Below, in pieces: positions 2,148 through 36,960 of a DNA stretch of 64,000 bases. The stretch spans positions 372,001-436,000 of the forward strand of contig NZ_JADQDP010000002.1 in the NCBI RefSeq assembly GCF_015694735.1, written 5' to 3'. Source of the DNA: Hymenobacter properus (GTDB taxonomy: Bacteria > Bacteroidota > Bacteroidia > Cytophagales > Hymenobacteraceae). The notes beneath the pieces are model-generated. The model was not told the DNA's origin. It worked only from the letters and a program-made list of their open reading frames with translations, and did no database searches. A program made the translations under genes and the position numbers. The stretch's first letter is position 1; each line of letters opens with the position of its first letter.

Positions 2148-2222
2148 GGGAGATTAGCTCAGCTGGTTCAGAGCATCTGCCTTACAAGCAGAGGGTCGTA
2201 GGTTCGAACCCTACATCTCCCA
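2148..2222 (+). tRNA. tRNA-Val (anticodon TAC)
   Basis: A full cloverleaf can be drawn: acceptor GGGAGAT/ATCTCCC, D stem GCTC/GAGC, anticodon stem TCTGC/GCAGA enclosing loop CTTACAA (anticodon TAC, reads GTA and related valine codons), T arm GTAGG-TTCGAAC-CCTAC, discriminator A. The CCA tail is not encoded. It is followed at once by its own terminator. Confidence 0.96.
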
Positions 2223-2232
2223 CACTGAGAAG

Positions 2233-2307: not shown

Positions 2308-2382
2308 GGGAGGTTAGCTCAGTTGGTTTAGAGCGCTTGCTTCACACGCAAGAGGTCGAAGGTTCGAATCCTTTACTTCCCA
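2308..2382 (+). tRNA. tRNA-Val (anticodon CAC)
   Basis: Acceptor GGGAGGT/ACTTCCC (one G-T pair), D stem GCTC/GAGC, anticodon stem CTTGC/GCAAG enclosing TTCACAC (anticodon CAC, reads GTG), T arm GAAGG-TTCGAAT-CCTTT, discriminator A, no encoded CCA. A separate valine isoacceptor for GTG fits the GTG-rich codon use seen in the neighbouring genes. Confidence 0.95.
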
Positions 2383-2387
2383 CACGA

Positions 2388-15728: not shown

Positions 15729-15800
15729 TAGCAATTTCAGACCGCTCGTACCCGAGTCCCTGTTAGCCATATCGTATTCTCCATTCCTCATTCTTGGTCT

Positions 15801-18800
15801 CTATTTTTTGGGCGTCCGCGTGGTGTCTACCCGCGCCGAAGGCTGGCTTTGCACGGAGTCCTTTTCGGCCTTCTTCTCAGCTTTGGCGTCCTTTTTATCG
15901 GCCCGGCGCTCGGCTTTGATGTCCTTGGGTACCTTCGAAAACAGCTCCTTCAAATCCTGGTAGTCGCGCTGGAACACCAAGGCCGCACCCGTGCGAATAA
16001 TCTGCCCATCGATGTCCTCATAGCTGTTTTGGCGGAACACGCGCACCCGCAGGCGGCCGTCGGCCAGCACGCGGTATTCGATGCTCACGTCGCCGGCCAG
16101 GTTGCTGGCGCTGTTTTGGCCACGGGTGGCCTGGGTGCCCGTGCCGCCGCTCAGGTTGATGTCGGTGCCCACGCGCACGGTGAGGCGGTTGTTGAGCAGC
16201 TGGCGGCGCAGGCCCACGTTCAGGTCGGTGCGGCTGCCCTGGCTGCCGTCGGCGCCGTAGGCAGCTTGGTTGGTCACGCCCAGGTCGAGGCCCAGGCCGG
16301 AGAGGTACTTGTCGGTGAGGTTGGTGAGCTGGTCCGTCAGCACGGCGCTGGCGCTGCCGCGCAGCTGCGTGGCCACCAAACCCTCGCCGCTGCTGGTCTG
16401 GAAAGGGTTCTGGGCCACAAACCGGCCCAGAATCAGCAGCGAAAACACCTGCTTGCTCAGCTCCGAGGTTTGGTTGGGCTGGCGCAGCTGGGCCAGCTTG
16501 GCTTCCACCTGGCCGTTGAGGGCGCCGCGCTGGTTTTCGGGCAGCGTGATGTCGAAGCCGATGGTGGGCTTGCTGAGCTGGTCGGTCACTTTCAGCAGCA
16601 CGTTAAACGGCAACCGGTTGCGCGATACCGTGGCGCTGGTCAGGTCGTCGGTGCCCTGGCCGGCCAGCAGCTCGGCCGGCGCAGCCTGCACCTTGTATAT
16701 GGCCGTGAGGTCGAGCGTGGCATTGTAGGGGTCGCCGTCCCAGGTGATGGACGAGCCCCGGCTCAGGATAAAATCGCGCTGCGCCAGGTTGTAGAGCGAC
16801 ATGTGGTACTGCCCGCGGGCCACGTCCAGCCGGCCGCTGAGCGAGATGGTGCCGTCGGGCGCAATGTTGGTGTTGAGCGTGCCGGCGGCCCGCACCTTCA
16901 GGTTGTCGCCGCTGGCCGGGTCGATGACGATGGTAAAGGGCGTGCGGTTGGTGATGGTAACCACGGCCGTGATGTCGTAGCCCGTGGCGTTCACCTTGGT
17001 AGTATCCACGGCTACTTTGCGGGCCAGCATGGTATCGAGCGGGGCGCTCTTGTCAATAAATTCAACAATACCCGTGCGCTCTTGAGTAGTAGGCGTGGCC
17101 GCCGGCGACTCCACCGTGAGGTTGGAGCCATCCACCACGGTCACGCGGGTGTCAATTTTGATGAGGTCGACCGGCCCGGTGAGGCGCGTTTCCGAATCAA
17201 GCACCAGGCGGCCGTAGAACAGCTCGTTGTTTTCGCGGGTACTGCGCACGGCCAGGAAATCATTGGTTGTTGCCCGCATGTCGAAGGCGTAGTTGATGAA
17301 ATCCTTGCTCAGCAGGTAGCCGTTAATGACGGCCTTGTTGGAAGCAGAATCCAGCACCGTGAAGTTGTTGAAGGCAATGCCCCGGACATCAAACGTCAGC
17401 GCCTGGTTGGGCAAGCGGAAGGGCGAGCCCAGCTGTGGCACGATGAAGCCGGCATCATCCGAGGTATTGAGCGTACCGCGCACGATAGGAGCGGAGGGGG
17501 CGCCCGTTACCGTCAGCTGCCCGCGGATGTAGCCCGTGGCGCTGCGCACCTGCCCCACCGAGAAAGGCTCCACTAGCTTCAGGTTGAGCCGGTTGGCGTC
17601 CACGGTCAGGTTGAGCGGAGTGGGGCTGCTGGCTAAGTAGGTGCCGGTTACGTGCACGTCGTTGCCGGCGCCGCCCACGGTGCCGGCCGCTCCGCCGGTC
17701 AGGCGCGCGTCGATGTCGTAGCGGCTGGGAGCGGGATTGGTGGCCTGGAAGGCAATGTCGCCAATCGAAGCCTTCTGGAACACCAGGTTTTTGATGGTGG
17801 CATCGGCCGTGAAGGCTTGGTTGGGCTTGCCCAGGTTGTCGATGCGGGCCGTGCCATTGAGCTGCCCCGCCACCAGCGAATCCTGCTGCTGCACGATGCG
17901 GGCCAGCTCGGCCAGCTCGAAATTGGTGAACGTGACGCCCAGCGGCGAGGTGGGTACCTGCGGATTCTGGCTTTGCAGGGCCAGGGTGCTGCGGCCGTTG
18001 GTCAGGTTCAGGCCATCGGCCACCACGGCGCCGCTGGGGTAGTAGCGCACGTAATTGTTGGCGCCGGCCGTCCAGTTCTGGTAGTTGATAATCTGCTCGG
18101 GCGCGGCCTCAAACTGGTAGGCCACTTCCTTGCCGCCGGGCTGGGCCAGGGCCTGCACGGTGCCCGCCAGCGCCAGCCGCTCACGGTTGGCCGAGTCGCC
18201 GAGGATAGCGGCCCGGGCAAACACCTTGTTGTTGGCAATGTTGCCCACCACGCTGGGGCGCCGCAGCCGCAGCGTGGTATCCTGCGCGGCCTGGGCCAGG
18301 CGCAGGCCGAAGTCCAGTTTGCTGGGGTCCGAGTCCACGTTCAGGCGCAGCGAATCGAGCCGGTAGTTGTTGTACTGAATAAGCGGAATGCTGGTGTTGG
18401 CCGTAAGGCGGGCGGCCTGCCGCGAGTAGTCGCCGGCCAGCGTGAAAGGCGAAATCTTCTTGAGGCCCGGCACCAGTTTGGTGGCCAGCCGCGGGTCTTT
18501 CAGCTTGAGCGAGTAGGTGAAATGCCGGTCAGCCGTGCTGGGCACGTAGCGCACACCAGGCACGTCGAAGTAGCGGTCGAGGTGCTGCTGCAGCTCGGTG
18601 GCAATGTCGCCGAGGTGCACGTTGCCGTCGAGGTTCACGTTGGCGATATCGGAGGTGATGACGGCCGTGGTGCGGGTAGCCGTCTGCACAATGCGGCCGT
18701 TGAGCGAGTCGAGCGCGAAAGGCTGGTTGTCGCGCACAATCACAATCTTCTGCCCGCTGAAGGTGCCGTTCAGCGTGTTCAGGTTCGAGCCGCGCAGGTT

Positions 18801-21050
18801 GGCCTTGAGGTTGCCCTGCACGCGCAAGTCGCCGCCGGTGTAGAAGCCCAGCGCCGTGAGGTTGGCGCCGCGCAGGTTCAGGTTGGTGACTTCGTAGGTG
18901 GGGTTGCGCGGGTCGCGCAGGTTCACCACAGCGCTCAGGTCGAGGTTGAGGTTGGGGTCGTTTTTGCTGCTGGCGTTGATGACGTAGCGGTTGCGGTCGA
19001 GGTCGACGGTGGCGGCTACGCCTTTATAAGTATAGCCGTTGTAGCGGGCGCTCTGCACGTTGGCGCGCACCTGGCCCACGAGCGTGCCGGGGTCCTGCAG
19101 GTTGCCGGTAGCGTTGATGCGGCCTGTGGCCGTGACGCGCCCAATGGTCGGGTCTTTCAGCAGCTTGCCAAAATCGAACCCGCCAATGGCAAACGTGCCC
19201 ACCAGCGGCTGCTGTCCGTTGGCCTGCTTGCGGCCCAGGTTGCCGCTGAAAGCCAGGTTGCCGTAGCTAGTGCGGGCCTGCAGGTCGGTGTTGAATTGCA
19301 GCGTGGTGGGGTAACCCTTGAAAGTGCCGCTCACCGCAAAAGTGGGTGGAATGCTGATGTTGTTCGGAATGCTGCCCTTGGGCGCGAGGCTCAGCACATC
19401 AGCCCGCGACGAGCTGAACTGCCGCAGGTTGGCATCGACGTACAACCGCCCGTCCACCTCCGGCAGGCCGGTGATGTGGATGCGGGGCACCTTCACAATG
19501 GTGTTGCGCAGGCCCACAAACTCGAAGTTGCGAATGGTCATGTCGCCTACACGGCCCGCTACCTGCCCGTTCAGCAGCACCGACTGGTTGGGTCCGGTGT
19601 TGAAGGGCGAGGTGCCGGCCAAGTCCGGCGCCAGGTACAAAATGTCGCGGAAGCCCAGTCGCACGTCGCGCAGGTCACCTTCAATCTTCAGATTCGGCAG
19701 CTTATTCACATCGCCCAGCGCGGCCAGGCTCTCGTAGCCAATGGCCAGCGTGCGCCGGATGCGGGTGTGCGGCGTCACCAAATCGAGGCTATCTAGCCGA
19801 ATCTGTACCGAGTCGTACACCACGTTAGCCTTCCACGAATCCACTCGGAAGCCGCTTTTCTCTTGCCCAGCCAGGTTGTCCACCTTGCCCGTTGTGCGGT
19901 TTTCGGAATAGCGCAGGTCGCGCGTGTTGAGTACAAGGTTGGTAAAATCGAGGTGGTTGTAGTCGAGCGCCGGGATGCGGGTGCGCTGCTGGGGTTGGTT
20001 GAAGTTGTCAAACTTCACGGCCAGGCCGCTGATGTCCGACTGGTCCAGGTTCACGCGCCAACCGGGCGAGGCGGCGGCCTGGCCGGTGGCGGCCTTGGCT
20101 TTGTCGGTGGCCTCGTCGAGTTTGCGCACAGCCTCGGCGGGGTTCACTACCCTTTCTTCCACGGGCACCTGCTCGTTTTGGGCATAGGCGAAGGTGGTGT
20201 TCTTGAGGGTGAGCTTGCCCAGGTTCACCCGCTGCCGCTGCAGGTCGATGTCCTTAGCGGTGATGTCGGCCAGACCGATGTTGGTGTTGATGTACTGCGC
20301 CGCGGGGTTATTCTTATAAGTAAACTGCACGCTGTCGAGCGTGGCGCGGTTAAGGCCAAACTGCAGGGTGAGCGGCTCGGTAGGGCCGGGGTTTTCCACC
20401 TCGGGCGCCGTCTTGGTTTGCACGATGCTGATGGCCGAGCGGCGCAGGGCCGCTTTATCCACCTTGTAGATGGAGTTGTCCACATCCACCTCGTCCATGT
20501 TGGCCGTGAACTCGCCGATGCGGGCCCGGATGTCGGAGCCCGTAATCTGGTCGAGCTGCGTAAAGTAAATGTTAGTGAGCCGGGCCTTGCCGATGTCGTA
20601 CTTCAAACCCGAAGCCGTGGTATCGACCGGCGCGGTGGGGTCGGTGAAGGCTTTGATGATGAAATCGTAATTGTTCACCGAGTCGGGCTCGGTGCGGGTG
20701 AGGCGCACGCGGCCGTCGTTCAACTCGATGTTCGAAACGTTGATTTGTTTGTGCAGCAGGTCCCAGATGGCAAGGTCGACGCCCAGGTGGCCCACCGACA
20801 GTAGCGTGTCGCGCTGCTGGTCTTCGAGGTACACGCCGTCGAGGTTGATGGCGTGGCGGAAGTCGGTGCGGAACTTGCCAATGCGCACTTCCGTACCCAG
20901 CTTGCCGCGTAAGTAATTCTCGGCTCTCTTGGCTACAAAGTCTTGTCCGGCATCGAATTGCAGAAACACCACCACTGCAACAACGAGCAGTAGCACCAAG
21001 GCAATTAAGCCCAACAATCCGTAAAGGGCACGACGCAGAAAAGTGGACAA
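15801..21050 (-). CDS. tamB: TamB-like translocation and assembly module protein
   Basis: A 1,749-residue protein with an N-terminal signal anchor (residues about 8-30: YGLLGLIALVLLLVVAVVVF), a very long beta-taco/beta-helix-like region, and a C-terminal TamB (DUF490) domain containing GQVEAKLAQLRQ, FSLLILGRF and LTDQLTNLTDKYLSG, then a Lys/Ala-rich tail. TamB bridges the two membranes and works with its barrel partner in envelope assembly and lipid transport. Its partner TamL is the next gene on the same strand. The gene is somewhat longer than the proteobacterial TamB (about 1,260 residues), typical for Bacteroidota. Large antisense reading frames inside it are GC-codon shadows. Confidence 0.93.
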   Translation of the reverse strand: MSTFLRRALYGLLGLIALVLLLVVAVVVFLQFDAGQDFVAKRAENYLRGKLGTEVRIGKFRTDFRHAINLDGVYLEDQQRDTLLSVGHLGVDLAIWDLLHKQINVSNIELNDGRVRLTRTEPDSVNNYDFIIKAFTDPTAPVDTTASGLKYDIGKARLTNIYFTQLDQITGSDIRARIGEFTANMDEVDVDNSIYKVDKAALRRSAISIVQTKTAPEVENPGPTEPLTLQFGLNRATLDSVQFTYKNNPAAQYINTNIGLADITAKDIDLQRQRVNLGKLTLKNTTFAYAQNEQVPVEERVVNPAEAVRKLDEATDKAKAATGQAAASPGWRVNLDQSDISGLAVKFDNFNQPQQRTRIPALDYNHLDFTNLVLNTRDLRYSENRTTGKVDNLAGQEKSGFRVDSWKANVVYDSVQIRLDSLDLVTPHTRIRRTLAIGYESLAALGDVNKLPNLKIEGDLRDVRLGFRDILYLAPDLAGTSPFNTGPNQSVLLNGQVAGRVGDMTIRNFEFVGLRNTIVKVPRIHITGLPEVDGRLYVDANLRQFSSSRADVLSLAPKGSIPNNISIPPTFAVSGTFKGYPTTLQFNTDLQARTSYGNLAFSGNLGRKQANGQQPLVGTFAIGGFDFGKLLKDPTIGRVTATGRINATGNLQDPGTLVGQVRANVQSARYNGYTYKGVAATVDLDRNRYVINASSKNDPNLNLDLSAVVNLRDPRNPTYEVTNLNLRGANLTALGFYTGGDLRVQGNLKANLRGSNLNTLNGTFSGQKIVIVRDNQPFALDSLNGRIVQTATRTTAVITSDIANVNLDGNVHLGDIATELQQHLDRYFDVPGVRYVPSTADRHFTYSLKLKDPRLATKLVPGLKKISPFTLAGDYSRQAARLTANTSIPLIQYNNYRLDSLRLNVDSDPSKLDFGLRLAQAAQDTTLRLRRPSVVGNIANNKVFARAAILGDSANRERLALAGTVQALAQPGGKEVAYQFEAAPEQIINYQNWTAGANNYVRYYPSGAVVADGLNLTNGRSTLALQSQNPQVPTSPLGVTFTNFELAELARIVQQQDSLVAGQLNGTARIDNLGKPNQAFTADATIKNLVFQKASIGDIAFQATNPAPSRYDIDARLTGGAAGTVGGAGNDVHVTGTYLASSPTPLNLTVDANRLNLKLVEPFSVGQVRSATGYIRGQLTVTGAPSAPIVRGTLNTSDDAGFIVPQLGSPFRLPNQALTFDVRGIAFNNFTVLDSASNKAVINGYLLSKDFINYAFDMRATTNDFLAVRSTRENNELFYGRLVLDSETRLTGPVDLIKIDTRVTVVDGSNLTVESPAATPTTQERTGIVEFIDKSAPLDTMLARKVAVDTTKVNATGYDITAVVTITNRTPFTIVIDPASGDNLKVRAAGTLNTNIAPDGTISLSGRLDVARGQYHMSLYNLAQRDFILSRGSSITWDGDPYNATLDLTAIYKVQAAPAELLAGQGTDDLTSATVSRNRLPFNVLLKVTDQLSKPTIGFDITLPENQRGALNGQVEAKLAQLRQPNQTSELSKQVFSLLILGRFVAQNPFQTSSGEGLVATQLRGSASAVLTDQLTNLTDKYLSGLGLDLGVTNQAAYGADGSQGSRTDLNVGLRRQLLNNRLTVRVGTDINLSGGTGTQATRGQNSASNLAGDVSIEYRVLADGRLRVRVFRQNSYEDIDGQIIRTGAALVFQRDYQDLKELFSKVPKDIKAERRADKKDAKAEKKAEKDSVQSQPSARVDTTRTPKK

Positions 21051-24753: not shown

Positions 24754-27700
24754 ATGAAACAGAGACTACTGACCAAAGCACTGGCGCTTGGGGGCCTTCT
24801 AGCTAACCTAAGCTTCGGCTCACAGGCCTGGGCCGAGGGGTCAAAAAACCTCACCCCCGGCACTAATACCGATGCCTTAACGGCCACGACTAATGACCGA
24901 ACCGGATTTCTGGTGCACGATTCGGACGTGGCTTCGGGGGGGATTGACGTCTCCTATGGGTTTTTGAAACCGGCTAGCTGGACCAGCACCGCAGCTGGCT
25001 CTTCGTTCTCGCCCGACCAGCGCCTGTATATCCGGCTGCTGCCCGGCGAAAAGTTGTCGTACGGCGTAAACCGCACGGCCCCGCTCACAAGCCTGACGGG
25101 CGCTGCTGCGGCCTATCAGGATTTGATGATTACGCTGCGCTACGGCACCGGCGATGGGACTATTGTAGACCAGAAAACCCTGACCCGCGCCAGCACCACT
25201 ACCAACACCTACCAACTGCTGACCACGCAGGCGGGGGTGATTAATAGCTATGCACAGGCCACCGCGGGCCCAGGCGGCGCCAATGGCTATGTGCCGCTTA
25301 CCTACGTCAACAATACCGGCGCCACGCAGGACTTCTTTGTAGAGTTCACGCAGGTGGGCGAATACACGAGCCAAGGCACGCAGGGTGCCTTCAATGATTT
25401 GAAAACGCGTAGCAACAATACGGCCTTTCCCGGCCAGCGCTACAGCGTGTACGATAAATGGGACTTCACCGTAACTGGCACCGACAACCTGGAGAAAACG
25501 GGCCGCCTGTTCAGCAAGTTCTGGGCTTTTTCGACCGGTCCTTCGGTCAACGCGCCGGGCGGCACCACGTTTGAAAACCGGCTATCCAAAAACTTTACGC
25601 TTTATCCCTTGGTGGAAAGCCGGGCCACGCCGGGCCAGTATTATGTGAAAGCCATTGAGCTGGCAGGCCTGCGACCCTACGCTTTCTTCTTTGTTACCAA
25701 TGAGTTTGGCTCCACCACCGCTACTGGGCGCAACACGGTAGCGCTGCGTCGGCGCAGCCAGACTAGCAACCTAGCGTATGCACAATACCCCAGTTTCGTG
25801 AACGACCCCGACCGCACCATTTGGCCCAGCGCCGCGGTGCCGGTGGCCAGCATCACGCCTCAGCCCTACTGCCGCAGTGGTAACACGGAAGTGGCGTTTA
25901 CTACCTATTCATCGGAAACGGGCCGGTTTGACATTAATATCACCTACGGCGGCAATACCCGGACGCTGACGGCTGATGTAACGGCTGGCACTTCGGCCAC
26001 CGTGCTATGGGACGGTTTGGTGAACGGCGTTCGGGTGCCCGCAGGCCAAACCATTTCCTATAGCTTTGTAAACCGCGGCGTGGCCGTCAACTTTCCCCTG
26101 TACGACGCCGAAGGCAACGAAGGCGGCTTTGTCGTGCGCAACGTGCGGCCTTCATCCACCGGCACCGACCTGCTGTATTGGGACGACACCAACCTGACCG
26201 GCTTCCCGACGCCCACCGTTCAAACCACTGGCACCAACGCCGCAAACGCCGGCCACCCCTGGGGCAATGGCACCAACACTGTGGGCAACAACTACCTAGT
26301 GAACAGCTGGACGTACGGTTTCGTGAGCACCGCCAGCAACCTATCCTACACCACGGTGAGCGTATGCGACAATGACAACGACGGTGTGACCGACAACACA
26401 GACATCGACGACGACAACGACGGGGTGCTGGATGTGGTGGAAGCCCTGTCCACGAACACGACCAGCATCGACCCCAGTGGCTTTGCCGACGCCCAGTCGC
26501 CCATTCGCTACCTCGACGTGGACTACGTGCACCCCGTGCTGGGTGCGTTCCGCGATGCCAACAAAGACGGCATTAACGATATCTTCGATATCGACCTCGA
26601 CGGCATTCCCAATCATTTCGACGTGGATGCTGATGGCGACGGCCTGCCCGACGCCGTGGAAGCCAACGGCAACAACTCAACGGTATCGGCTCCGACTTAT
26701 TCATTCAGAAAAAACCTGGCCGGCGGCGGCACCAAATCCAGCGACTACAACACCTCGCTGGGCAAGTACATGGCAACCGACGTAAGCACAGCCCCTTCCA
26801 GTGTGGGAAGCAACGGCTTGCCCGATGCCGTGAAGCAAACCATGACTTATTCAAATACCGGCACCATTACAGCTGAAGACGGTGTAAGCAAATACACGCT
26901 GACCGACAACGACGCCGATACGTTCACGGCTAACAGCCAGACCGTGCGCAACTATAATTTCCTGGATTTTGATTCAGACAACGACGGCATCGACGACGGC
27001 CGCGAGGCCCAGGCCACGCTGACTTATGTAGCCCCCACCGGCCTCGACAATGACAAGGATGGGCTGGACAATGCCTACGATGCTACCCCGGGTGGCACCG
27101 CACTCGTTGGCACCAGCTTGACGTATGCCGTGGATACGGATGCCGACACCAAAGCCGATATGTTCGACGCCGATTCCGACAACGATAATGCGGCCAACGG
27201 TGCCAAATCTGTACTGCAGCAAACGGCCGACTGGTCCGAGGGCTTTGACACGAACGACAACGGCCGGGCCGGTGATGAAATCCTGGCCAAAGCCCGCGCC
27301 TTCACGGTTGCTAACACGGAAAAAGCTACCTATTACCCGGTAGGCAATACCTTGGCGGCTACGGCGTTCCTCCAGGATACGGACAACGACAAGATTCCAA
27401 ATTTCCTCGACACCGACAGCCCGTATTACCACGATGCCAACTTCAACGGACTAGTAGACCTATACGACCCCACGTACGGCGGCACGCCGTCGACCGCGCC
27501 CAAAAACGCGGCAGGCACCCAGTACCTGTTCCGCTCCAATGCCGTTGCCGTGCCCCTGCCGGTTGAGCTGACAGTTTTTGAGGCCACGGCCAAGAAGGCC
27601 GATGCCGTGCTAACCTGGACCACGGCTTCGGAGAAGAATAACGACCATTTCGTGGTGGAGCGCTCTATCAACAGCACCACGTTCGTAGCTGTGGGCACGG

Positions 27701-28101
27701 TGCGCGGCCAGGGCAGTACCACCCGCGCCACCGAGTACCGCTTCACCGACGCCGGGGTGGGCCCGCTGACGCAGGGTGTGGCTTACTACCGCCTGAAGCA
27801 GGTAGATGCCGATGGCACTGCCTCATACGGCCCCATTCGCAAGGTGGTGTTTGGCATAGGTAAAGCCGCGGTGTCGCTCTACCCCAACCCCAGCCAGGAA
27901 AACGCCACGCTTGACCTCAGTGGCCTAGCCGCCGGCTCGTACCAGGTGCAGGTAGTTGACCTGGCCGGCCGTGTGCTGCGCAAACAGCAAATGGAAGCGG
28001 TGGCTGCGTCGCTCGATTTGCAAGGCCTGCCGCAGGGTGCCTACATCGTGCAGGTGCAAGGCGCGGGTATCAGCCAAGCGCTGCCGCTCATCCGCCGCTA
28101 A
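24754..28101 (+). CDS. T9SS-secreted protein with thrombospondin type-3-like calcium repeats
   Basis: A 1,115-residue secreted protein. A signal peptide (cut near SQAWA, about residue 27) is followed by an unassigned beta-rich region (about 30-540). From about 545 to 960 come acidic, calcium-binding thrombospondin-3-like segments such as [61 protein letters not shown] and [15 protein letters not shown] fibronectin-like module ([16 protein letters not shown]) leads to the C-terminal type A sorting domain ([32 protein letters not shown]), which directs export by the Por secretion system and surface attachment. The substrate or partner is unknown; adhesion or biofilm roles are plausible. A strong terminator follows and it is a single-gene unit. 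Confidence 0.9.
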
Positions 28102-28785: not shown

Positions 28786-31700
28786 ATGAAAATAAACATA
28801 CCTATTAGGGCCCTATTGTTGGCTTGGGTCAGTCTCATAAGTATTGAGACGTGGGCCCAAACCTGCAACCAAACCACGACCTTTAACTACGCCACGGCCG
28901 CTCCCGGCAGCCGCAAGGCCGCCAGCGATGTGGTAGGTGGTACCACACTGACTACCAGTGGCTACACCTCGACCGTGACCGGGACGAACACCAACTTATT
29001 CTCGGTGGGCGCCGATGCGGTGTTGGGCACTGGTAATTACTTGGTGTGGAAGCAGAACAACGTGGGCGTGACCGGTGCCAACGTAGCGACCGTTACCTAT
29101 ACGTTCAGCCGGCCGTTAAGCAATTTCACCATCCGCCTTACCGACATCGACCAGGACGTGCAGCCCACTTCCGCCACGCCGGCCGACTTCATCGACCGCG
29201 TGACGTTCGACGGCTACGACGCGGCCACGGGCGGCAACCTCGTCACGCTGACTACTGCCAACGTGACTGTGGGCACGAACAACACCAACCGCTTTGTGGG
29301 CTCGGGCTCGGGCCTCACGGCGGCCACGACGCCGCAGTTCAAGACCAATGCCGTGACCGGCATAGCTGCCAGCGCTGCTGACCGTGCCAGCGACGTGACC
29401 GTGCGCTTCCCCAGCCCGATTCAGCGCTTGGTGCTCACCTACGAAAACATTGCCCCGGCCAACACCACGGCCGACCGCACGCAAACCACGGGCATTGTAG
29501 ACCTAGCCTGGTGCGCCCAGTCCGACATTCAAACGACCATCAGCGGGCCAACCAGCGCCTCGTTCAACTCGACGGCCACCTACAGCGTGACCACCCAGAA
29601 CCTGAGCGGCGACGTTGCCAACGGCGTGGTGCCCACGCTGACGCTGGTGCCCAACCTACCCCTGGCCAGCCTGACGCTGCCCGCCGGCGCCACCTACACG
29701 GCCAGCACGGGCGTGGTCACGTTTGCCACCATCAACAACCTGGCGACCGGCGCGGCCAACGCCGTCACGAACTCGGTCAGCTTTGTGATGCCAAACCAAA
29801 CCGTGACCGGCAAAGCCGCTAGCTCGGCTTCGCCCAACGACGGCACCGTGGCCAACAACAACGGCACAGCTACTGCCGCCAACATTACCACCACAGTAGC
29901 GGCCAATACGCCGCCCGTGGCCAACAACGTGACCAACTCGCCGGTGCTGCCTAACAGCAGCCCCGCCACCGCCATTGCTCCGCTGAGCGCCACCGACGCC
30001 AACGGCAATGGCTCCATTGTGTCGTATACCCTGGTGACCGTGCCCAACCCGACCACGCAGGGCACGCTGTACGTGAACGGTGGCCCGGCCCGCGCCGGCC
30101 AGGTGCTGACCCCCACCCAAATTTCGCAGCTCAGCTTCGCGCCGGTGGGCACTTATGTGAACGCATCTTCGCCCACCTTTACTTACTTGGCTACCGACGA
30201 CCAAGGTGCTGCTTCAAACACTGCTAACTACATCATCCCCACTAGCGCCGGCTCGGCCGACGTGGTGACGACGATTTCGGGCCCCACCGCTGCGGCGGCC
30301 GGCCAGACGGTGGCCTACCAGGCCATCAGCCAGAACAATGGCCCCAACTACGCCCAGGCCGTGGTGGCTACTATTCAGCTCCCGGCCGGTACCACGGGCG
30401 TCAACGTAACGAATGGCAGCTATAATCCTTCGACTGGGCTGGTGACGTTTGACGCCGTAGGCATTGCTAGCGGCGCCTCGGTGGTGAACTCGGTGAGCTT
30501 CGTGGCGCCCACGCCAACCAGCGGCAGCGTGAACGTGACCGGCAAGGCCGCCAGCACCAGCTCCACGGCCGACCCTGCGGCAGCCAACAACAACGGCACC
30601 GCCGCCGCGGCCAACGTGACCACGACGGTGGGTGCGGCTAGCACCGCCGCCACCCCCGGCCCGTGCCCGACCACGCCCAGCACGGCCACTACCCCTACGG
30701 CCGCCATTGGCAACCAATACTATGCGGTATCCAACCAAACGACCACGGCGGGCACGACCACGGTAATCACGCTGCCCAGCCTTAACCAAGGCTACGGAGG
30801 TAGTACGGCTGCCATCAACAGCGGTGACTTACTGCTGATAGTGCAGATGCAGGGAGCCGACATCGACGCCACCAACACGGTGAGCTACGGCAACGGTGTG
30901 CCCAGCGCACCCGTGAACGGCAACCTCTCCAACAACAATTTCACGGCGGGCCGCTACGAGTATGCCATCGCCAGCTCGTACAATGCTCCGAAAAACAACC
31001 AAGACGGCAGCGTAACCCTCAGCACCGCGCTGCGCAACGCTTACTCGAATGCAGATGCTACTGCTGCGACCGGTCAGCGCCGGTTTCAGATTATCAAAGT
31101 GGCGTCTTACCAAAGCCTGACGCTAAGCGGCAACCTGTCGCTGCAAACATCGGCCGGCGGCCAGGTGTGGAACGGCCGCGTGGGCGGCGTTATCGCGCTT
31201 GACGTGCTGGGGACGCTTAATTTCAATGGTTTTAATATTGATGCTTCGGGTGCCGGCTTCCGCGGGGGCGCGGGCATTGAACAGGCCGGCGACGCCACCG
31301 CTAGCGGCACCGACTACCGAAACCTAGCTTCTAAAACCGTGCACGGCGCCAAAGGCGAAGGCATGGCGGGTACTCCCCGTTTCACCAATAACGGTGGCGC
31401 TACAACGGCCGCAACCGATAACGTAGCGGAAGGCTACCCCAGCGGCAGCAACGGCCGCGGCGGGCCCGGCAATGCCGGCGGTGGCGGCACCGACGCCAAC
31501 CCGGCGGCCAACGACCAAAACACCGGCGGCGGCGGCGGCGCCAACGGCGGCCAGGGCGGCCGTGGCGGCAACTCGTGGAACAGCAACCAACCGGTGGGCG
31601 GGGAGCCCGGGGCCGCCTTCGCGGTGGCCAGCACCAACCGCCTAGTGATGGGCGGTGGCGGCGGCGCCGGCACCACCAACAACGGCACCGGCGACAACGC

Positions 31701-34700
31701 CAACGGCTTCGCCAGCAGCGGCGCGGCCGGCGGCGGCCTGGTGCTGATTCGGACCGGCTCGGTGAGCGGCGCGGGTTCGGTGCTGGCCAACGGCGCCAAT
31801 GCCAACAACAGCGTGCTGAACGACGGCAGCGGCGGCGGCGGCGCGGGTGGCTCGGTGCTGCTCACGGCCAACAATACGCTGGGTCTGCCCAACATCATTC
31901 TGCAAGCCAACGGCGGCAACGGCGGAACGAACACCCCGGGCGCCGACCCCCACGGCCCGGGCGGCGGCGGTGGCGGCGGCTTTGTGTACACCAACGGTCC
32001 GGCGTCGAGTGCCTCGTCGGCCAACGGCGGGGCCAACGGCCTCACGCTCGCCACGAGCGGCACAACTGCCTACGGCGCGCAACCCGGCTTGGCCGGGGTG
32101 GTGAACAAGAACATTGGCAACGTCATCACCAACACCACGGCTGGCATCAACTGCACCTTCGACTTGATTTCGGACCTGACTGGCCCGACCACGGCCGCGG
32201 TGGGCAGCACAGTGAACCTGAACGTAGACTTCTATAACAACGGTGGTACGGCGGCCAGCAACGTGGTGCGCACCGTCACTCTCAAAGTGCCGGTGGCCAC
32301 GGTTATTACCGCTACCGGCGGCACAGTGGGCGCCTACAACGTGGCCGCTGGGACTTACACGGTCACCTACCCGACCCTGACGACTATGGCCGGTGGTACC
32401 ATTACTTCTTTCGGTATCTCGTATGTGGTGGCTGCAGGCACGACTTCGGCGGTGGCCAACTCCAACATCACGCCGGCCGCCGACGCAGTGCCGGCGAACA
32501 ACACCGACCAGCTGACGACCACCATTTCGACCAATGCCGACGTGGCCACTACGCTCAGCGGCCCCACGTCGCTGTACGCTGGCCAGCCTTCGGGTACTTA
32601 CACCGCGACCTTCACCAACAACGGCCCGGCAACGGCGGTGCAGGTGACGCAGAAAGTAACTCTGCCCACCGGCGTCACCAATGTGGTATTGCCCACTGGT
32701 GCTACCCTGGCGGGCAACGTTATCGACTTCGGTACGGCAGCTACGCTGGCCAGCGGCGCCACTAACATGTTCACGTTCAGCTACACCGCTTCGACCACGC
32801 CTACCGCCTCGACTCCGGCCACGGCTGCCAACACGCTGACCAGCAACACCACGACTACTTCCGGCCAGGGCGGCATCACCGCCAACGACGCCGCCTCGCT
32901 GGCCCTGACGGTGGTGGGTACCGCCGACGTGCAGGCTGCTATCACGGCTTCGAACGCCACGGCCACGGCCGGCGGCACGGGTGCCAACCAAGGACAGTTC
33001 AACGTGACGTTCCGGAACACCGGTGCGGTGGCGGCGGCCGACCCTTCGCTGATTGTGGAGCTGGTGCCTAACCTGACCAACGTTACCATTGGCGCCATCA
33101 CGGGCTACACCGCGGCTTACGACGCCACCACGGGCCTTGTAACGTACACGCCCACGGCGGCCGGGACTACCCTTGCGGCCGGGACTACGCTGGCCACTTC
33201 GGCCATCAAGTTTGACGTGCCGGCCACCGGCCCGGTAACGGCTACGGCCAATATTAGCACCAGCACCAACGAAGGCGGCCAGACGGCCAACAATTCGGCA
33301 TCGGCTTCCATCAACGTCACCCCGCAGTTCGACGTGCAGACGCGCATCGTGGGGCCCACTTCGGTACCGGCCAACGGCACGGTGACTTACGATGTGACGA
33401 CCTTCAACGCCACCAGCACCCAGACGACGGGCTCTATCTCGCCGGCCTTGAACGTGGTGCAGACGGTGCAGCTGCCAACTAACCTGACCAACGTGTTTGT
33501 GACCAACGGCGGCACGTACGACAAGAGCAGCGGCTTGGTGACCTTCCCGGCCCTGCCCAGCCTGGCGCCCGGTGCCAGCGTCAACAACGTCATCAGCTAC
33601 AGCCCCACGGCTGCCGCGACGGCCTTCGCTGTGACGGCCACGGCCACGCCCAATACCACGGCGGCCGGCGACCTGAACACGGCCAACAACTCGGCCGTGG
33701 TGAACCTGACCGTGAACGCCGCCACGGCGGCATCGGCCAACCTGTACACGACCATCACGGTGCCGAGCAATGCGGTGACCGCCGGCAGCACCGTCACCTT
33801 CACGGTGGCTTCGGGCAACGCCGGCCCGGGCGCGGCCACCAACGTGACCCAGACGGTGTCGTTGCCGGCCGGCCTGAGCGGGGTAACCGTATCGGGCGGC
33901 CCGGCAGGCGCCACAGCCAGCAACGCCAACTACAACGCTACAACCGGCGTGGTTACGCTGCCCACTATTTCGGGCGCAGTGACTTCGGGCTCGGCGTACA
34001 CCTACACCATCACGGCCACGGCTCCCGGCGGGGGCACCATCACGGCCATGTCGACCATCGGCTCCGACACGTCGGACCCCATGCCCAGCAACAACCTGTC
34101 GAACGTGGACGTGACGGTGAGCCCCACCACCAACGACCTGGCAACGACCATCACGGGCCCGGCCTCGGTGCTGGCCGGACAGGCCGTGACCTACACGGTG
34201 ACCACCCTCAACAACGGTCCCCTGACGGCTACGCCGACGCAGACCGTTTCTATCCCGGCCGGCCTGACGGCCAGCCAGGTGACCTTTGGCGGCCCGGATG
34301 CAGCGGGTGCCACTTACGACGCCACGACCGGGCTGGTCACCTTCCCGCAGGTGGCAAACCTGGCGCCCGGCACGCGCCGCGAAAACACCGTGACCTACCT
34401 AGCGCCCAACGTGCCCACGCTGACCAACGTGGCCTCGGTAACGGGCTACCGGATTGACAGTGCGCCGGCCAACAACGCGGCCACGGCCAGCACCACCGTG
34501 ATTCCGAACAGCGACTTCACCGTGGCCATCAACGGACCCGCCACGACGGTGGCGGCCGGCAACCTGGTGACGTACACGGTGACGACGACCAACAACGGCC
34601 CCTCGGCCAGCAATGGCCAGACGACGACCGTGCAACTGCCGGCGGGCCTGACTGGCCTGACGTCGGTAGCCGTCTCGGGCGGCGGCACCTACAACAACGC

Positions 34701-36960
34701 CACGGGCCTGGTGACCTTCCCGGCCCAAACCAACCAGGCACCTGGTGCAGCCAACGCCATCGTGAACACCATCACGTTTACGTCGCCTTACGTGCCCGAA
34801 ATCACAGCTGCCGCCACGGTAACGCCCACCGACGCCAGCAATGACCAGATTTTCAATAACAACTACGCGGCCACGGTGACCACCCTGGGCGCGCAGACGG
34901 CCGCTGTGGCCGACGTGCAAACGACCATCACGTCCAACCTGGAAACGCAAGCGGCCGGCTCGGCGGTGACGTTCACCGTGACCACGGTGAACGCCAGCAT
35001 CACCACGGCGGCCGCTCAGGTGGCCCAGAAGGTGCTGCTGCCGGCCGGCCTGACCGGCGTGACGATTTCGGGCGGCCCGGCGGGCGCTACGGCCAGCAAC
35101 GCCAATTACGACGCCACGACCGGCGTGGTCACCTTCCCGGTGGTTGCCTCGATGGCAGCCAACACGACCAACACGTACACCATCACGGTGAACGCGCCCG
35201 GCACAGGCCCGCTGCTGGCCACTGCTGCCGTAACCGATAACACCTCCGACCCGAACCTGGCCAACAACATTGCCAGCACCTCAGTGTCGGTAGCAACTCA
35301 GGTGAACGAGCAAATCTCGCTGGCGGGCCCGGCACAAGTGCAGCCCAACACGCCCGTGACCTACACTGTGACGACGCGCAACAACGGCCCCTCGACGGCT
35401 TCGAACGTGAACTACTCGGTGCAGCTGCCGGCCGGCCTGGGCACGGTGACCGCCTCGGGCGGTGGCACCTACGACAACGCCACGGGCATCGTGACCTTCC
35501 CCGCGCTCAGCACCCAAAACACTGGCGCGACGAATCAGGCCCTGAACACTATCACCTTCACCTCGCCCACCTACTCGTACACAGCGGTGGCCAGCGTGAC
35601 GGCTAGCGGCGATATTCTGGCCTCGGACAACACTTCGTCGGTGACCACGCAGGTGAACTACCTGCCCGTGGCCCTGCCCTTGGTGAATACCGGCGTCAAC
35701 TACCGCGTCCCCGAAGGCAACACGGCCGACCAGCTCGCGCTTTCGCCGGTGCAAGGCACCGATACCGACCCCGGCACGGTGGTGAAGTACATCATCACGT
35801 CGCTGCCCACGGCGGCCCCCAGTGGCAACAGCCCCGGGGTGCTGTACTACAACGGCGCAGTGGCCACCGTGGGTACGGTGGTGACGGACGCCACCAAGCT
35901 GACGTTCGACCCCGCTGCCAACTTCGTGGGCAATGCTTTCTTCACCTACCTGGCCGTCGATAACCAAGATGGGCAGTCGCTTCCGGCGCTCTACACCATC
36001 CCGGTGGGCCAGGACAACGCTGCAGTTTACACGGTTATCACCAAGGGTGGCAATGCCAACCAATACCAGAACGGCGACGTGGTGGCCTACGGCATCGACA
36101 CCAACGGTGCCCTCTACAATGCCTCCGGCCTGGTGTACAACGCCAACGGCACCCCGGCCACGGGCACGGTGAACAACGGCATCGTCACCGGTTCCATCAC
36201 GGCTGCCAACACCGCGGCCCTGACGGCGGTGGGCATTGCCTATAACGCCACCACCGGCTTGTTCACGGTAACGGACCGCACCAAGCTGCCCCGCGCCGGC
36301 CAGACCATCCCGGTGACCATCACCACCACCGACCTCTACGGCGGTATCACCACGCAGACCTTCAACCTCGTGCTGGGCGCCAACCCGCTGCCGGTGGAGC
36401 TGACCGACTTCACGGCGACGGCAGTGAAAAACGTGGACGCTGCCTTGGTGTGGCACACGGCTTCGGAGAAGAACAACGACCACTTCGATGTGGAGCGTAG
36501 CTTGAATGGCACCGACTTCGTGAAAATCGCGCAAGTGAAAGGCCAGGGCTCGAGCTCGGTGGCCACGCCCTACGGCCTGACGGACGCTGGTATCGGCCGC
36601 AAGGCCACCGGCTTGGTGTACTACCGCCTCAAGCAGGTCGACACCGACGGCACGGCGACCTACTCGCCGGTGCGCACCGTGGCCTTCACGGGCACCGCCA
36701 CCGCCGAGCCGGCCATCACCCTGTTCCCGAACCCCGCCACCTCGACCACGCAACTCGACCTGACGGCGCTGCCTGCTGGTAGCTACCAGGTGAGCGTGCT
36801 CGACGCCACGGGCCGCATGGTGCTGAGCGTAACGCGCGAAGCCGGCTTGGCCCAGGCATTGGATGTGAACACCATTGCCAGCGGCACCTACATGGTGCTG
36901 GTGCGCGGCGTGAGCAACGGCCAAACCATTAACCTCACCAAGCGCCTTATCAAGGAATAA
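28786..36960 (+). CDS. Giant T9SS-secreted DUF11-repeat protein with glycine-rich insert
   Basis: About 2,724 residues, starting at ATG 28786, which begins a signal peptide (ends near TWAQ); the frame is open slightly further upstream but without signal sequence. Eleven DUF11-like beta-sandwich repeats are recognisable by the pattern D-x-x-T-x-I-x-GP-x4-A-G followed by NNGP, LPAGLTGVT and YDATTGVVTFP. Repeats 3 to 11 start near 32161, 32539, 32926, 33331, 33739, 34135, 34513, 34912 and 35302, a spacing of about 375-407 bases. A glycine-rich domain of about 500 residues (30650-32160) interrupts repeats 2 and 3. Cadherin-like segments flank repeat 1 and follow repeat 11. The end carries the NNDHFDVERS module and a type A sorting domain (LFPNPATSTTQLDLTA). 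It is likely a surface adhesin. Confidence 0.9.
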   Translation: MKINIPIRALLLAWVSLISIETWAQTCNQTTTFNYATAAPGSRKAASDVVGGTTLTTSGYTSTVTGTNTNLFSVGADAVLGTGNYLVWKQNNVGVTGANVATVTYTFSRPLSNFTIRLTDIDQDVQPTSATPADFIDRVTFDGYDAATGGNLVTLTTANVTVGTNNTNRFVGSGSGLTAATTPQFKTNAVTGIAASAADRASDVTVRFPSPIQRLVLTYENIAPANTTADRTQTTGIVDLAWCAQSDIQTTISGPTSASFNSTATYSVTTQNLSGDVANGVVPTLTLVPNLPLASLTLPAGATYTASTGVVTFATINNLATGAANAVTNSVSFVMPNQTVTGKAASSASPNDGTVANNNGTATAANITTTVAANTPPVANNVTNSPVLPNSSPATAIAPLSATDANGNGSIVSYTLVTVPNPTTQGTLYVNGGPARAGQVLTPTQISQLSFAPVGTYVNASSPTFTYLATDDQGAASNTANYIIPTSAGSADVVTTISGPTAAAAGQTVAYQAISQNNGPNYAQAVVATIQLPAGTTGVNVTNGSYNPSTGLVTFDAVGIASGASVVNSVSFVAPTPTSGSVNVTGKAASTSSTADPAAANNNGTAAAANVTTTVGAASTAATPGPCPTTPSTATTPTAAIGNQYYAVSNQTTTAGTTTVITLPSLNQGYGGSTAAINSGDLLLIVQMQGADIDATNTVSYGNGVPSAPVNGNLSNNNFTAGRYEYAIASSYNAPKNNQDGSVTLSTALRNAYSNADATAATGQRRFQIIKVASYQSLTLSGNLSLQTSAGGQVWNGRVGGVIALDVLGTLNFNGFNIDASGAGFRGGAGIEQAGDATASGTDYRNLASKTVHGAKGEGMAGTPRFTNNGGATTAATDNVAEGYPSGSNGRGGPGNAGGGGTDANPAANDQNTGGGGGANGGQGGRGGNSWNSNQPVGGEPGAAFAVASTNRLVMGGGGGAGTTNNGTGDNANGFASSGAAGGGLVLIRTGSVSGAGSVLANGANANNSVLNDGSGGGGAGGSVLLTANNTLGLPNIILQANGGNGGTNTPGADPHGPGGGGGGGFVYTNGPASSASSANGGANGLTLATSGTTAYGAQPGLAGVVNKNIGNVITNTTAGINCTFDLISDLTGPTTAAVGSTVNLNVDFYNNGGTAASNVVRTVTLKVPVATVITATGGTVGAYNVAAGTYTVTYPTLTTMAGGTITSFGISYVVAAGTTSAVANSNITPAADAVPANNTDQLTTTISTNADVATTLSGPTSLYAGQPSGTYTATFTNNGPATAVQVTQKVTLPTGVTNVVLPTGATLAGNVIDFGTAATLASGATNMFTFSYTASTTPTASTPATAANTLTSNTTTTSGQGGITANDAASLALTVVGTADVQAAITASNATATAGGTGANQGQFNVTFRNTGAVAAADPSLIVELVPNLTNVTIGAITGYTAAYDATTGLVTYTPTAAGTTLAAGTTLATSAIKFDVPATGPVTATANISTSTNEGGQTANNSASASINVTPQFDVQTRIVGPTSVPANGTVTYDVTTFNATSTQTTGSISPALNVVQTVQLPTNLTNVFVTNGGTYDKSSGLVTFPALPSLAPGASVNNVISYSPTAAATAFAVTATATPNTTAAGDLNTANNSAVVNLTVNAATAASANLYTTITVPSNAVTAGSTVTFTVASGNAGPGAATNVTQTVSLPAGLSGVTVSGGPAGATASNANYNATTGVVTLPTISGAVTSGSAYTYTITATAPGGGTITAMSTIGSDTSDPMPSNNLSNVDVTVSPTTNDLATTITGPASVLAGQAVTYTVTTLNNGPLTATPTQTVSIPAGLTASQVTFGGPDAAGATYDATTGLVTFPQVANLAPGTRRENTVTYLAPNVPTLTNVASVTGYRIDSAPANNAATASTTVIPNSDFTVAINGPATTVAAGNLVTYTVTTTNNGPSASNGQTTTVQLPAGLTGLTSVAVSGGGTYNNATGLVTFPAQTNQAPGAANAIVNTITFTSPYVPEITAAATVTPTDASNDQIFNNNYAATVTTLGAQTAAVADVQTTITSNLETQAAGSAVTFTVTTVNASITTAAAQVAQKVLLPAGLTGVTISGGPAGATASNANYDATTGVVTFPVVASMAANTTNTYTITVNAPGTGPLLATAAVTDNTSDPNLANNIASTSVSVATQVNEQISLAGPAQVQPNTPVTYTVTTRNNGPSTASNVNYSVQLPAGLGTVTASGGGTYDNATGIVTFPALSTQNTGATNQALNTITFTSPTYSYTAVASVTASGDILASDNTSSVTTQVNYLPVALPLVNTGVNYRVPEGNTADQLALSPVQGTDTDPGTVVKYIITSLPTAAPSGNSPGVLYYNGAVATVGTVVTDATKLTFDPAANFVGNAFFTYLAVDNQDGQSLPALYTIPVGQDNAAVYTVITKGGNANQYQNGDVVAYGIDTNGALYNASGLVYNANGTPATGTVNNGIVTGSITAANTAALTAVGIAYNATTGLFTVTDRTKLPRAGQTIPVTITTTDLYGGITTQTFNLVLGANPLPVELTDFTATAVKNVDAALVWHTASEKNNDHFDVERSLNGTDFVKIAQVKGQGSSSVATPYGLTDAGIGRKATGLVYYRLKQVDTDGTATYSPVRTVAFTGTATAEPAITLFPNPATSTTQLDLTALPAGSYQVSVLDATGRMVLSVTREAGLAQALDVNTIASGTYMVLVRGVSNGQTINLTKRLIKE
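30650..32160 (+). other. Glycine-rich insert domain within the giant protein gene
   Basis: A coding segment separating DUF11 repeats 2 and 3. It begins with a non-repetitive part (NQYYAVSNQTTTAGTTTVI, LLLIVQMQGADIDATN) and becomes Gly/Asn/Ala-rich (GGGGTDANPAANDQ, GGQGGRGGNSW, GPGGGGGGGFVYTNG). The spacing of small residues suggests a beta-helix or Gly-loop-rich adhesive fold; the DNA is extremely GGC/GGN-rich. Confidence 0.7.
32161..35690 (+). repeat. Tandem DUF11-like coding repeats, nine units of about 390 bp
   Basis: Nine consecutive repeat units within the giant gene, with the most similar pair being the units at 33739 and 34912, which share LPAGL(S/T)GVT(V/I)SGGPAGATASNANY. Such similarity could permit recombination and length change. 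Confidence 0.75.

What the first reader, a model, noticed from the sequence alone, without database searches (positions are those of the whole stretch)
28786..36960. Giant DUF11-repeat surface protein with a 500-residue glycine-rich insert
Eleven related beta-sandwich repeats, a glycine-rich insert after repeat 2, cadherin-like segments and a Por sorting domain form a very long adhesin-like protein. The insert lies between repeats as if added later; the high similarity of repeats 7 and 10 suggests recent exchange.
Basis: partly seen in the sequence, partly recalled or inferred. Interest (0 to 1): 0.5.

Follow-up and report, generated by a model that had tools for sequence, protein, structure and literature searches.

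The report
Giant surface protein with glycine-rich head
A Hymenobacter bacterium encodes a very long secreted surface protein with eleven stalk repeats and a glycine-rich block that proves to be an old, self-contained domain which related proteins carry, lack or place differently, and which distant bacteria share.

Summary
The anatomy is confirmed: 28786-36960 (+) encodes 2724 aa with a signal peptide-like start, an N-terminal domain, 11 DUF11 repeats, a 509-aa block after repeat 2, and a type IX secretion (T9SS) type A tail. The block is a domain in its own right: a predicted barrel plus an ordered glycine-rich part. It is absent from Pfam, is related to NCBIfam gliding_AgmC_N (below cut-off), and also occurs in cyanobacteria, Chloroflexi, Acidobacteria and proteobacteria, usually with DUF11 (14 of 15 scanned outside Bacteroidota; 0 of 4 Bacteroidota outside Hymenobacteraceae). 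It is not a recent arrival here: H. rubidus has the same architecture, and so has a well-supported clade of nine further Hymenobacter proteins (one extended). Yet on a tree of 56 stalks its presence changes at least ten times, so it behaves as a cassette on the genus scale. Cysteines lie near both ends of 64 of 68 copies (3.9 expected). The repeats lack the isopeptide lysine; pairs 7/10 and 9/11 may have exchanged short tracts. Best reading: an adhesin-like protein that carries an exchangeable, probably disulfide-closed head on a DUF11 stalk. Adhesion is inferred, not shown. New member of a known kind.

The parts
28786..36960 (+). coding sequence, 2724 aa, giant T9SS-exported DUF11 protein
   Evidence: ORF and translation; Pfam
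28786..28857 (+). signal peptide-like start MKINIPIRALLLAWVSLISIETWA
   Evidence: read by eye; no predictor run
28861..29520 (+). N-terminal domain (residues 26-245), no Pfam match; Cys27 and Cys243 at its ends
   Evidence: found in 44 of 101 Hymenobacter genomes at E<=1e-8; Cys near both ends in 91 of 99 copies, no control run
29521..29895 (+). DUF11 repeat 1
29896..30255 (+). Ig/cadherin-like segment 1 (residues 371-490)
   Evidence: no cadherin-family hit itself; related to segment 2, E 7e-12
30256..30627 (+). DUF11 repeat 2
30631..32157 (+). the insert: AgmC_N-related domain (residues 616-1124), Cys627 and Cys1123 near its ends
   Evidence: NCBIfam NF047640 121.5 bits in the whole protein, 139.9 as a separate domain, cut-off 275; AlphaFold2 pLDDT 83.9, pTM 0.89; Cys near both ends in 64 of 68 copies
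30706..31107 (+). predicted barrel part of the insert (about residues 641-774)
   Evidence: VIA-align rows over model residues ~30-163, Z up to 9.6
31231..32043 (+). glycine-rich part of the insert (about residues 816-1086)
   Evidence: 63 columns with Gly in at least 80% of 36 rows; AlphaFold2 of residues 776-1120, which contain it, pLDDT 85.7, pTM 0.88
32158..35655 (+). DUF11 repeats 3 to 11 (starts 32158, 32536, 32923, 33328, 33736, 34132, 34510, 34909, 35302)
33832..33956 (+). repeat 7 side of a 125-nt stretch 82% identical to repeat 10
35008..35132 (+). repeat 10 side of that stretch
35656..36030 (+). Ig/cadherin-like segment 2 (residues 2291-2415)
   Evidence: Cadherin_5 20.3 bits, Big_9 20.3 bits, both below cut-off
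36721..36912 (+). Por_Secre_tail, T9SS type A sorting domain (residues 2646-2709)
   Evidence: Pfam 36.6 bits, cut-off 27

Best explanation
The gene encodes a cell-surface, fibrillar-adhesin-like protein. It is exported by Sec and then by the T9SS (type A tail), and so is probably anchored at its C-terminal end. Repeats 3-11 form a stalk of beta-sandwich domains; the N-terminal part, with the 509-aa AgmC_N-related domain, is the distal head. That domain is old and self-contained, its ends probably joined by a disulfide, so that it can be added to, lost from or moved between stalks. Shown here: domain order, conservation, repeated change of presence among relatives, association with DUF11 outside Bacteroidota, paired cysteines, presence of SprA. 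Inferred: the disulfide, the stalk geometry, the anchoring. Guessed: that the head binds a ligand.
For: DUF11 x11 and type A tail. SprA model at 2205 bits and at least 122 Por tails in the genome (150 of 166 candidates scored). Insert in 59 of 101 Hymenobacter genomes at E<=1e-10 and in 23 of 198 genomes sampled from the phylum. In 40 of 40 insert copies in tail-bearing chains with at least 6 repeats, more repeats follow than precede it (mean 8.85 against 1.15). At least 10 changes of presence on the stalk tree, 10 forced by starred branches. Outside Bacteroidota 14 of 15 scanned proteins carry DUF11 (6 of 6, 8 of 9); in nine cyanobacterial ones it starts within 7 residues of the domain's end, as repeat 3 does here. 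Cys near both ends in 64 of 68 copies against 3.9 expected. Predicted ordered. DUF11 arrays are described as stalks of fibrillar adhesins in PMC12617251 and as stalk domains in PMC9210967 (passages); type A tails are replaced by A-LPS in P. gingivalis per PMC9143113 (passages).
Against: No adhesive domain of known function was recognised and no ligand is known. Four of four Bacteroidota proteins scanned outside Hymenobacteraceae have the domain and a T9SS tail but no DUF11, and one cyanobacterial protein has no Pfam hit (L047), so the DUF11 pairing is not general. The two Cys of the insert lie in low-confidence ends of the model, so the disulfide is not seen. A study of an archaeal protein with 11 DUF11 repeats proposed that these repeats do not cause aggregation (PMC6759345, passages). 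PorU and A-LPS synthesis were not searched for in this genome. The stalk tree may itself be blurred by exchange between stalks.
Confidence: 0.6

Rival explanations
1. One reading: the glycine-rich block was inserted recently into this DUF11 protein, and its repeat number is in flux.
For: By the stalk, the window and H. rubidus do not group with the nine-protein clade of the same architecture; their place among forks with and without the insert is unresolved. In a search with repeats 3-11 alone, the best matches after H. rubidus include insert-free proteins (G054, G006, G053 at 52%). At the same chromosomal site relatives lack it. The barrel part has the lowest GC3 of the mature domains (72.8% against 77-90% for the others).
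Against: H. rubidus shares it at the same place, 80% identical; the glycine-rich part has a higher mean identity to ten relatives (63%) than any other region; dN/dS against H. rubidus is 0.10-0.15, within the range of the other regions (0.07-0.34); each of the 11 repeats has its H. rubidus counterpart at 62-88%, and 110 of 110 repeats in ten proteins have the same position in another protein as nearest neighbour.
Confidence: 0.12
2. The protein is part of gliding: the AgmC_N-related block works as in the Myxococcus protein AgmC, as a surface contact of the gliding machinery.
For: 36 of 36 aligned copies match NF047640; T9SS and gliding share a mechanism in Bacteroidota (PMC12635249, start of abstract in the search listing).
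Against: Own score 121.5-139.9 bits against a cut-off of 275; the domain is also in cyanobacteria and Chloroflexi; the tail is type A, whereas the motility adhesin SprB has a type B tail (PMC9143113 passages). Whether this strain glides is unknown. What AgmC does is taken from the family's name and recall; paper searches for it found nothing.
Confidence: 0.15
3. A structural surface fibre or coat protein in which the block is a stiff spacer and binds nothing.
For: Repeats rich in T, A and N with almost no Lys or Cys; DUF11 repeats proposed to stabilise cell-wall surface structures (PMC6759345 passages).
Against: The block is kept towards the distal end and its glycine-rich part is more conserved than the stalk, which a passive spacer would not need.
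Confidence: 0.17

Closest known systems
NCBIfam NF047640 gliding_AgmC_N (adventurous gliding motility protein AgmC)
   Same: The insert aligns to model positions 35-405 of 412 in two pieces; 36 of 36 aligned copies match.
   Different: Below the curated cut-off (139.9 against 275 bits); carried inside a DUF11 / T9SS protein.
Pfam PF01345 DUF11, renamed CLIPPER in PMC12617251 (crystal structure 9IFR)
   Same: 11 stretches, 248 bits; tandem arrangement.
   Different: No Lys in the first 39 residues of any of the 11 repeats, so the Lys-Asn isopeptide bond described there (Lys715, Asp748, Asn806) is not expected. That paper notes that some DUF11 domains lack it.
SprB-type giant T9SS motility adhesins (Flavobacterium)
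   Same: Giant T9SS-exported surface protein of Bacteroidota.
   Different: Type A tail here; SprB has a type B tail and binds SprF (PMC9143113 passages).
Glycine-rich domains of phage tail-fibre tips (S16 gp38, Pam3 gp24), of ALK, and mycobacterial PGRS poly-glycine II sandwiches
   Same: GGGGxGG-type stretches next to a beta domain (PMC9608196 passages; PMC9436101 passages); predicted ordered; one weak row with phage PP01 gp38, Z 5.2 over 129 residues.
   Different: No PDB sequence match; Foldseek finds no PDB match for the glycine-rich part alone; torsion angles could not be inspected.

Membership tests
DUF11 (PF01345) | profile match above gathering score | tested here: met
   248 bits, 11 stretches, cut-off 24.6
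CLIPPER isopeptide domains | Lys near the domain start bonded to Asn near its end | tested here: not met
   0 of 11 repeats have Lys within the first 39 residues; reference residues from PMC12617251 passages. 9IFR did not come up in the PDB search with the repeat profile, so the position was judged by distance from the domain start, not by alignment
T9SS type A cargo | signal peptide plus Por_Secre_tail at the C-terminus | tested here: met
   PF18962 36.6 bits, cut-off 27; signal peptide read by eye only
T9SS type A cargo | host has the T9SS | tested here: met
   SprA model TIGR04189 2205 bits, cut-off 200; at least 122 tails; other T9SS components not searched
AgmC (NF047640 equivalog domain) | score at or above the curated cut-off of 275 bits | tested here: not met
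   121.5 bits in the whole protein, 139.9 as a separate domain
AgmC (NF047640 equivalog domain) | role in adventurous gliding | not testable with these tools
   needs a mutant
Fibrillar adhesin | stalk of repeated beta domains and a sorting signal | tested here: met
Fibrillar adhesin | adhesive domain with a ligand | not testable with these tools
   no known adhesive family matched
SprB-type motility adhesin | type B C-terminal tail | tested here: inconclusive
   the tail matches the type A model PF18962; no type B model was searched for by name
Poly-glycine II sandwich | bundled left-handed polyglycine helices | tested here: inconclusive
   ordered glycine-rich model with few strands or helices, but conserved-Gly pairs are enriched at spacings 1, 2 and 3 alike, with no separate period of 3; no coordinates to inspect; no Foldseek PDB match

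The most novel reading that the evidence does not exclude
The AgmC_N-related block is an undescribed, phylum-crossing receptor-binding head of bacterial surface proteins: a barrel plus a glycine-rich bundle closed by an end-to-end disulfide, exchanged as a cassette between DUF11 stalks, above all at one variable surface-protein site of Hymenobacter (between the GH77 and the FAD oxidoreductase genes). It would be a cellular counterpart of the glycine-rich tips of phage adhesins.
Probability: 0.25. Interest if true: 0.55.

Novelty: new member of a known kind. Interest (0 to 1): 0.33.

Why it matters
The suspected late insertion becomes a test case for a widespread domain that Pfam does not hold and for which no solved relative was found here. 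If the domain binds something, it may be the unrecognised adhesive part of many surface proteins. The Hymenobacter site gives a natural series of comparable proteins with and without the domain.

Tried and rejected
Replaced by a stalk-only tree and an insert-independent search; both show more gain and loss than I had allowed. For that reason I raised the 'recent insertion' rival from 0.08 to 0.12 and interest from 0.30 to 0.33. I had also scanned only six distant proteins for DUF11; complete all 19 loci outside Hymenobacteraceae that gave a full-length domain, and five of the 19 lack DUF11.

Homogenised repeats: rejected (110 of 110), apart from two short candidate tracts. DNA-level tandem array: Tandem Repeats Finder lists only one 38-nt array in the gene, at 29367. 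Pfam CSD (20.4 bits, cut-off 27) and Integrin_A_Ig_3 hits are below cut-off, as is NCBIfam retron_eff_Se72. Viral carriers: a scan of viral contigs with A1 gave 600 pattern matches and no confirmed relative; 10 predicted viral structures match at E<=0.001 (best 5.4e-13, TM 0.46), which may reflect composition. PDB by sequence: whole protein none, A1 none, repeats only weak rows (best E 0.0019, a coat protein). Foldseek PDB: nothing at E<=0.001 for the insert, nothing at E<=10 for the glycine-rich part; VIA-align then had one chain (Z 2.8). In one search many EF-Tu and V-ATPase chains also match the barrel part at Z 5-6, so it may be a common barrel. Papers on AgmC or NF047640: none in this library, which does not show that none exist.

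Rows dropped: of 35 loci, L041 (partial), L058, L064 and L065 gave no full-length insert and are not in A1/A2 (36 rows: the window and 35 copies from 31 loci). One short copy was skipped. The loci were chosen by matches to the insert or the N-terminal domain; some genomes are there twice. sees 20-kb stretches only. One search scored 6 candidates a genome. One search is a quick tree without bootstraps.

Full report
Setting. The window lies in a 5.5-Mb genome (own contig C2, 372001-436000). That it is a Hymenobacter is judged from the named relatives brought in by the insert (H. rubidus DG7B nearest, 80%). The gene runs from ATG 28786 to 36960 on the + strand without interruption.

Observation. 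Pfam gives 11 DUF11 stretches and a Por_Secre_tail; a profile made from the repeats gives the same 11, starting at residues 246, 491, 1125, 1251, 1380, 1515, 1651, 1783, 1909, 2042 and 2173. Between repeats 1 and 2, and after repeat 11, lie two related Ig/cadherin-like segments; only the second has weak, below-cut-off family hits. Residues 26-245 form an N-terminal domain without a Pfam match that recurs in 44 of 101 Hymenobacter genomes at E<=1e-8. The insert is residues 616-1124.

What the insert is. NCBIfam matches it to NF047640 (AgmC N-terminal domain) at 121.5 bits in the whole protein and 139.9 as a separate domain, against a cut-off of 275. Pfam has no hit at E<=0.1 for it or its 35 aligned relatives, and no PDB sequence matches at E<=1. 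It occurs in 59 of 101 Hymenobacter genomes at E<=1e-10, in 23 of 198 genomes sampled across the phylum, and in contigs labelled Calothrix, Nostoc, Rivularia and other cyanobacteria, Chloroflexi, Acidobacteria, Syntrophaceae, Comamonadaceae and, as a fragment, Myxococcales. Aligned copies outside Hymenobacteraceae are 39-53% identical to it. AlphaFold2 gives a confident model (pLDDT 83.9, pTM 0.89). Model residues ~30-163 align to small barrels in a K1-capsule lyase, GH110 enzymes and phage tail proteins (Z up to 9.6 over 75-95 residues), but EF-Tu and V-ATPase chains follow at Z 5-6, so this may be a common arrangement. The glycine-rich part alone is also predicted ordered (pLDDT 85.7, pTM 0.88) with few strands and has no Foldseek match in the PDB.

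Company it keeps. I scanned with Pfam all 19 loci outside Hymenobacteraceae that gave a full-length domain. DUF11 is present in 14: 6 of 6, 8 of 9 (not L047), 0 of 4. The four are the Bacteroidota ones, which have a T9SS tail. In nine cyanobacterial proteins DUF11 starts within 7 residues of the domain's end, the same junction as insert and repeat 3 here.

Is it a late addition? I compared 316 ORFs of at least 600 codons from 95 loci. The architecture N-domain, repeat, segment, repeat, insert, nine repeats, segment, tail occurs in ten proteins including this one and H. rubidus, and in an eleventh with an extra insert and repeat upstream (L034/L077). Counting those alone would be circular, so I built a tree of 56 stalks (last eight repeats to the end, without the insert). 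Nine of these proteins (all but the window's and H. rubidus's) form one clade with support 100, and 9 of 9 keep two repeats directly before and nine after the insert: the architecture is stable over long times. The window and H. rubidus are sisters (100) but stand apart from that clade; their place is unresolved. Across the tree the presence of the insert changes at least 10 times (37 rows with, 19 without; shuffled labels average 16; 10 are forced by starred branches). A search with repeats 3-11 alone ranks, after H. rubidus (73%), insert-free proteins of G054, G006 and G053 (52%) among the best. So the insert is shared with the nearest relative and not recent, but it comes and goes in the genus; gain and loss cannot be told apart on an unrooted tree.

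Conservation. Against ten relatives the glycine-rich part has the highest mean identity (63%), segment 1 follows (57%), and the other domains, including the insert's own barrel part (50%), lie at 43-51%. Against H. rubidus alone the N-terminal domain (87%), repeat 9 (86%) and repeat 2 (82%) exceed it (81%). dN/dS against H. rubidus is 0.10-0.15 for the insert and 0.07-0.34 overall. The barrel part has lower GC3 (72.8%) than the other mature domains (77.0-90.4%), which I cannot explain (all).

The site. Many giant genes sit between a GH77 4-alpha-glucanotransferase gene (with TamB upstream) and a FAD-dependent oxidoreductase gene (with ECF sigma factor, alpha/beta hydrolase and patatin genes downstream). 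With both GH77 and oxidoreductase in one fetched stretch, five loci have an insert-bearing giant gene (the window, G019, G060, G044, G061) and nine have none (G081, G048, G006, G018, G092, G053, G054, G085, G007); G077 has one if two overlapping stretches are read together. The loci were picked by their matches, so these are examples, not frequencies.

Cysteines. The protein has four: 27 and 243 at the ends of the N-terminal domain, 627 and 1123 near the ends of the insert. In 64 of 68 distinct insert copies there is a Cys within a 50-residue window at both ends; random placement in the same proteins gives 3.9. The copies are related, so this is not 68 independent cases. For the N-terminal domain the count is 91 of 99, with no control. 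I infer an end-to-end disulfide. The model does not show it, as those ends are of low confidence.

Repeats. For 110 repeats from the ten proteins of one architecture, the nearest neighbour is the same position in another protein, 110 of 110; for the window this reaches back to the split from H. rubidus. Within this gene, repeats 7/10 and 9/11 share 75-nt windows of 85% and 84%, when the next best pair has 75% and the same pairs in H. rubidus have 69%. Repeat 10 here carries a GPAGATASNANY stretch that is near-identical in repeat 7 of both species and differs in H. rubidus repeat 10. Short gene conversion is plausible, not proven. DUF11 has been renamed CLIPPER for its Lys-Asn isopeptide bond (PMC12617251, passages); none of the 11 repeats has a Lys in its first 39 residues.

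Mechanism. Export by the T9SS is well supported (type A tail, SprA, at least 122 tails). With the C-terminus at the surface the insert lies towards the distal end: in 40 of 40 copies in tail-bearing chains with at least six repeats, more repeats follow than precede it. DUF11 arrays are described as stalks of fibrillar adhesins (PMC12617251, PMC9210967, passages). I therefore favour an adhesin-like protein with an exchangeable head on a stalk; ligand and phenotype are unknown.

Verdict. A correct observation, an interpretation half right (module yes, recent no), an ordinary class of protein, and one under-described domain worth a structure.

Noticed in passing
window 24754-28101 (+): Neighbouring 1115-aa T9SS protein with DxDxDG-type (thrombospondin type 3-like, read by eye) repeats and a type A tail; its end is 52% identical to residues 2525-2721 of the giant protein.
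   Followed up: no
L038/L084 (H. polaris); L059, L062 (Chitinophagales): Proteins with two copies of the AgmC_N-related domain in one chain; L059 and L062 have no DUF11.
   Followed up: partly
Hymenobacter genomes, e.g. G052:C2:2144533-2145981: A second class of ORFs of about 1250-1440 aa carrying the insert domain at 42-54% identity; architecture not examined.
   Followed up: no
L058 (Hymenobacter sp. BRD67), G005:C1:175350-176691: The insert-bearing gene looks broken: ORFs of 729 and 633 aa in the locus, and an in-frame TAG reported by one match.
   Followed up: no
window 34510-34893 with 35302-35655: Repeat pair 9/11 shows the same sign of short exchange as pair 7/10.
   Followed up: partly
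L039 (Chloroflexi), L053 (Acidobacteria); L048 (Chloroflexi): The domain and DUF11 are fused to a C-terminal peptidase C25 resembling PorU below its cut-off (L039, L053), or to a sortase domain (L048).
   Followed up: no
window 30706-31107 (+): The barrel part of the insert has lower GC (58%) and GC3 (73%) than the other mature domains; unexplained.
   Followed up: no
window 13452-15791 (-) and 15801-21050 (-): Omp85 and TamB genes side by side, a TAM-like pair, next to the conserved GH77 gene.
   Followed up: no
window 2148-2223 and 2308-2383 (+): Two tRNA-Val genes (anticodons tac and cac) in tandem.
   Followed up: no
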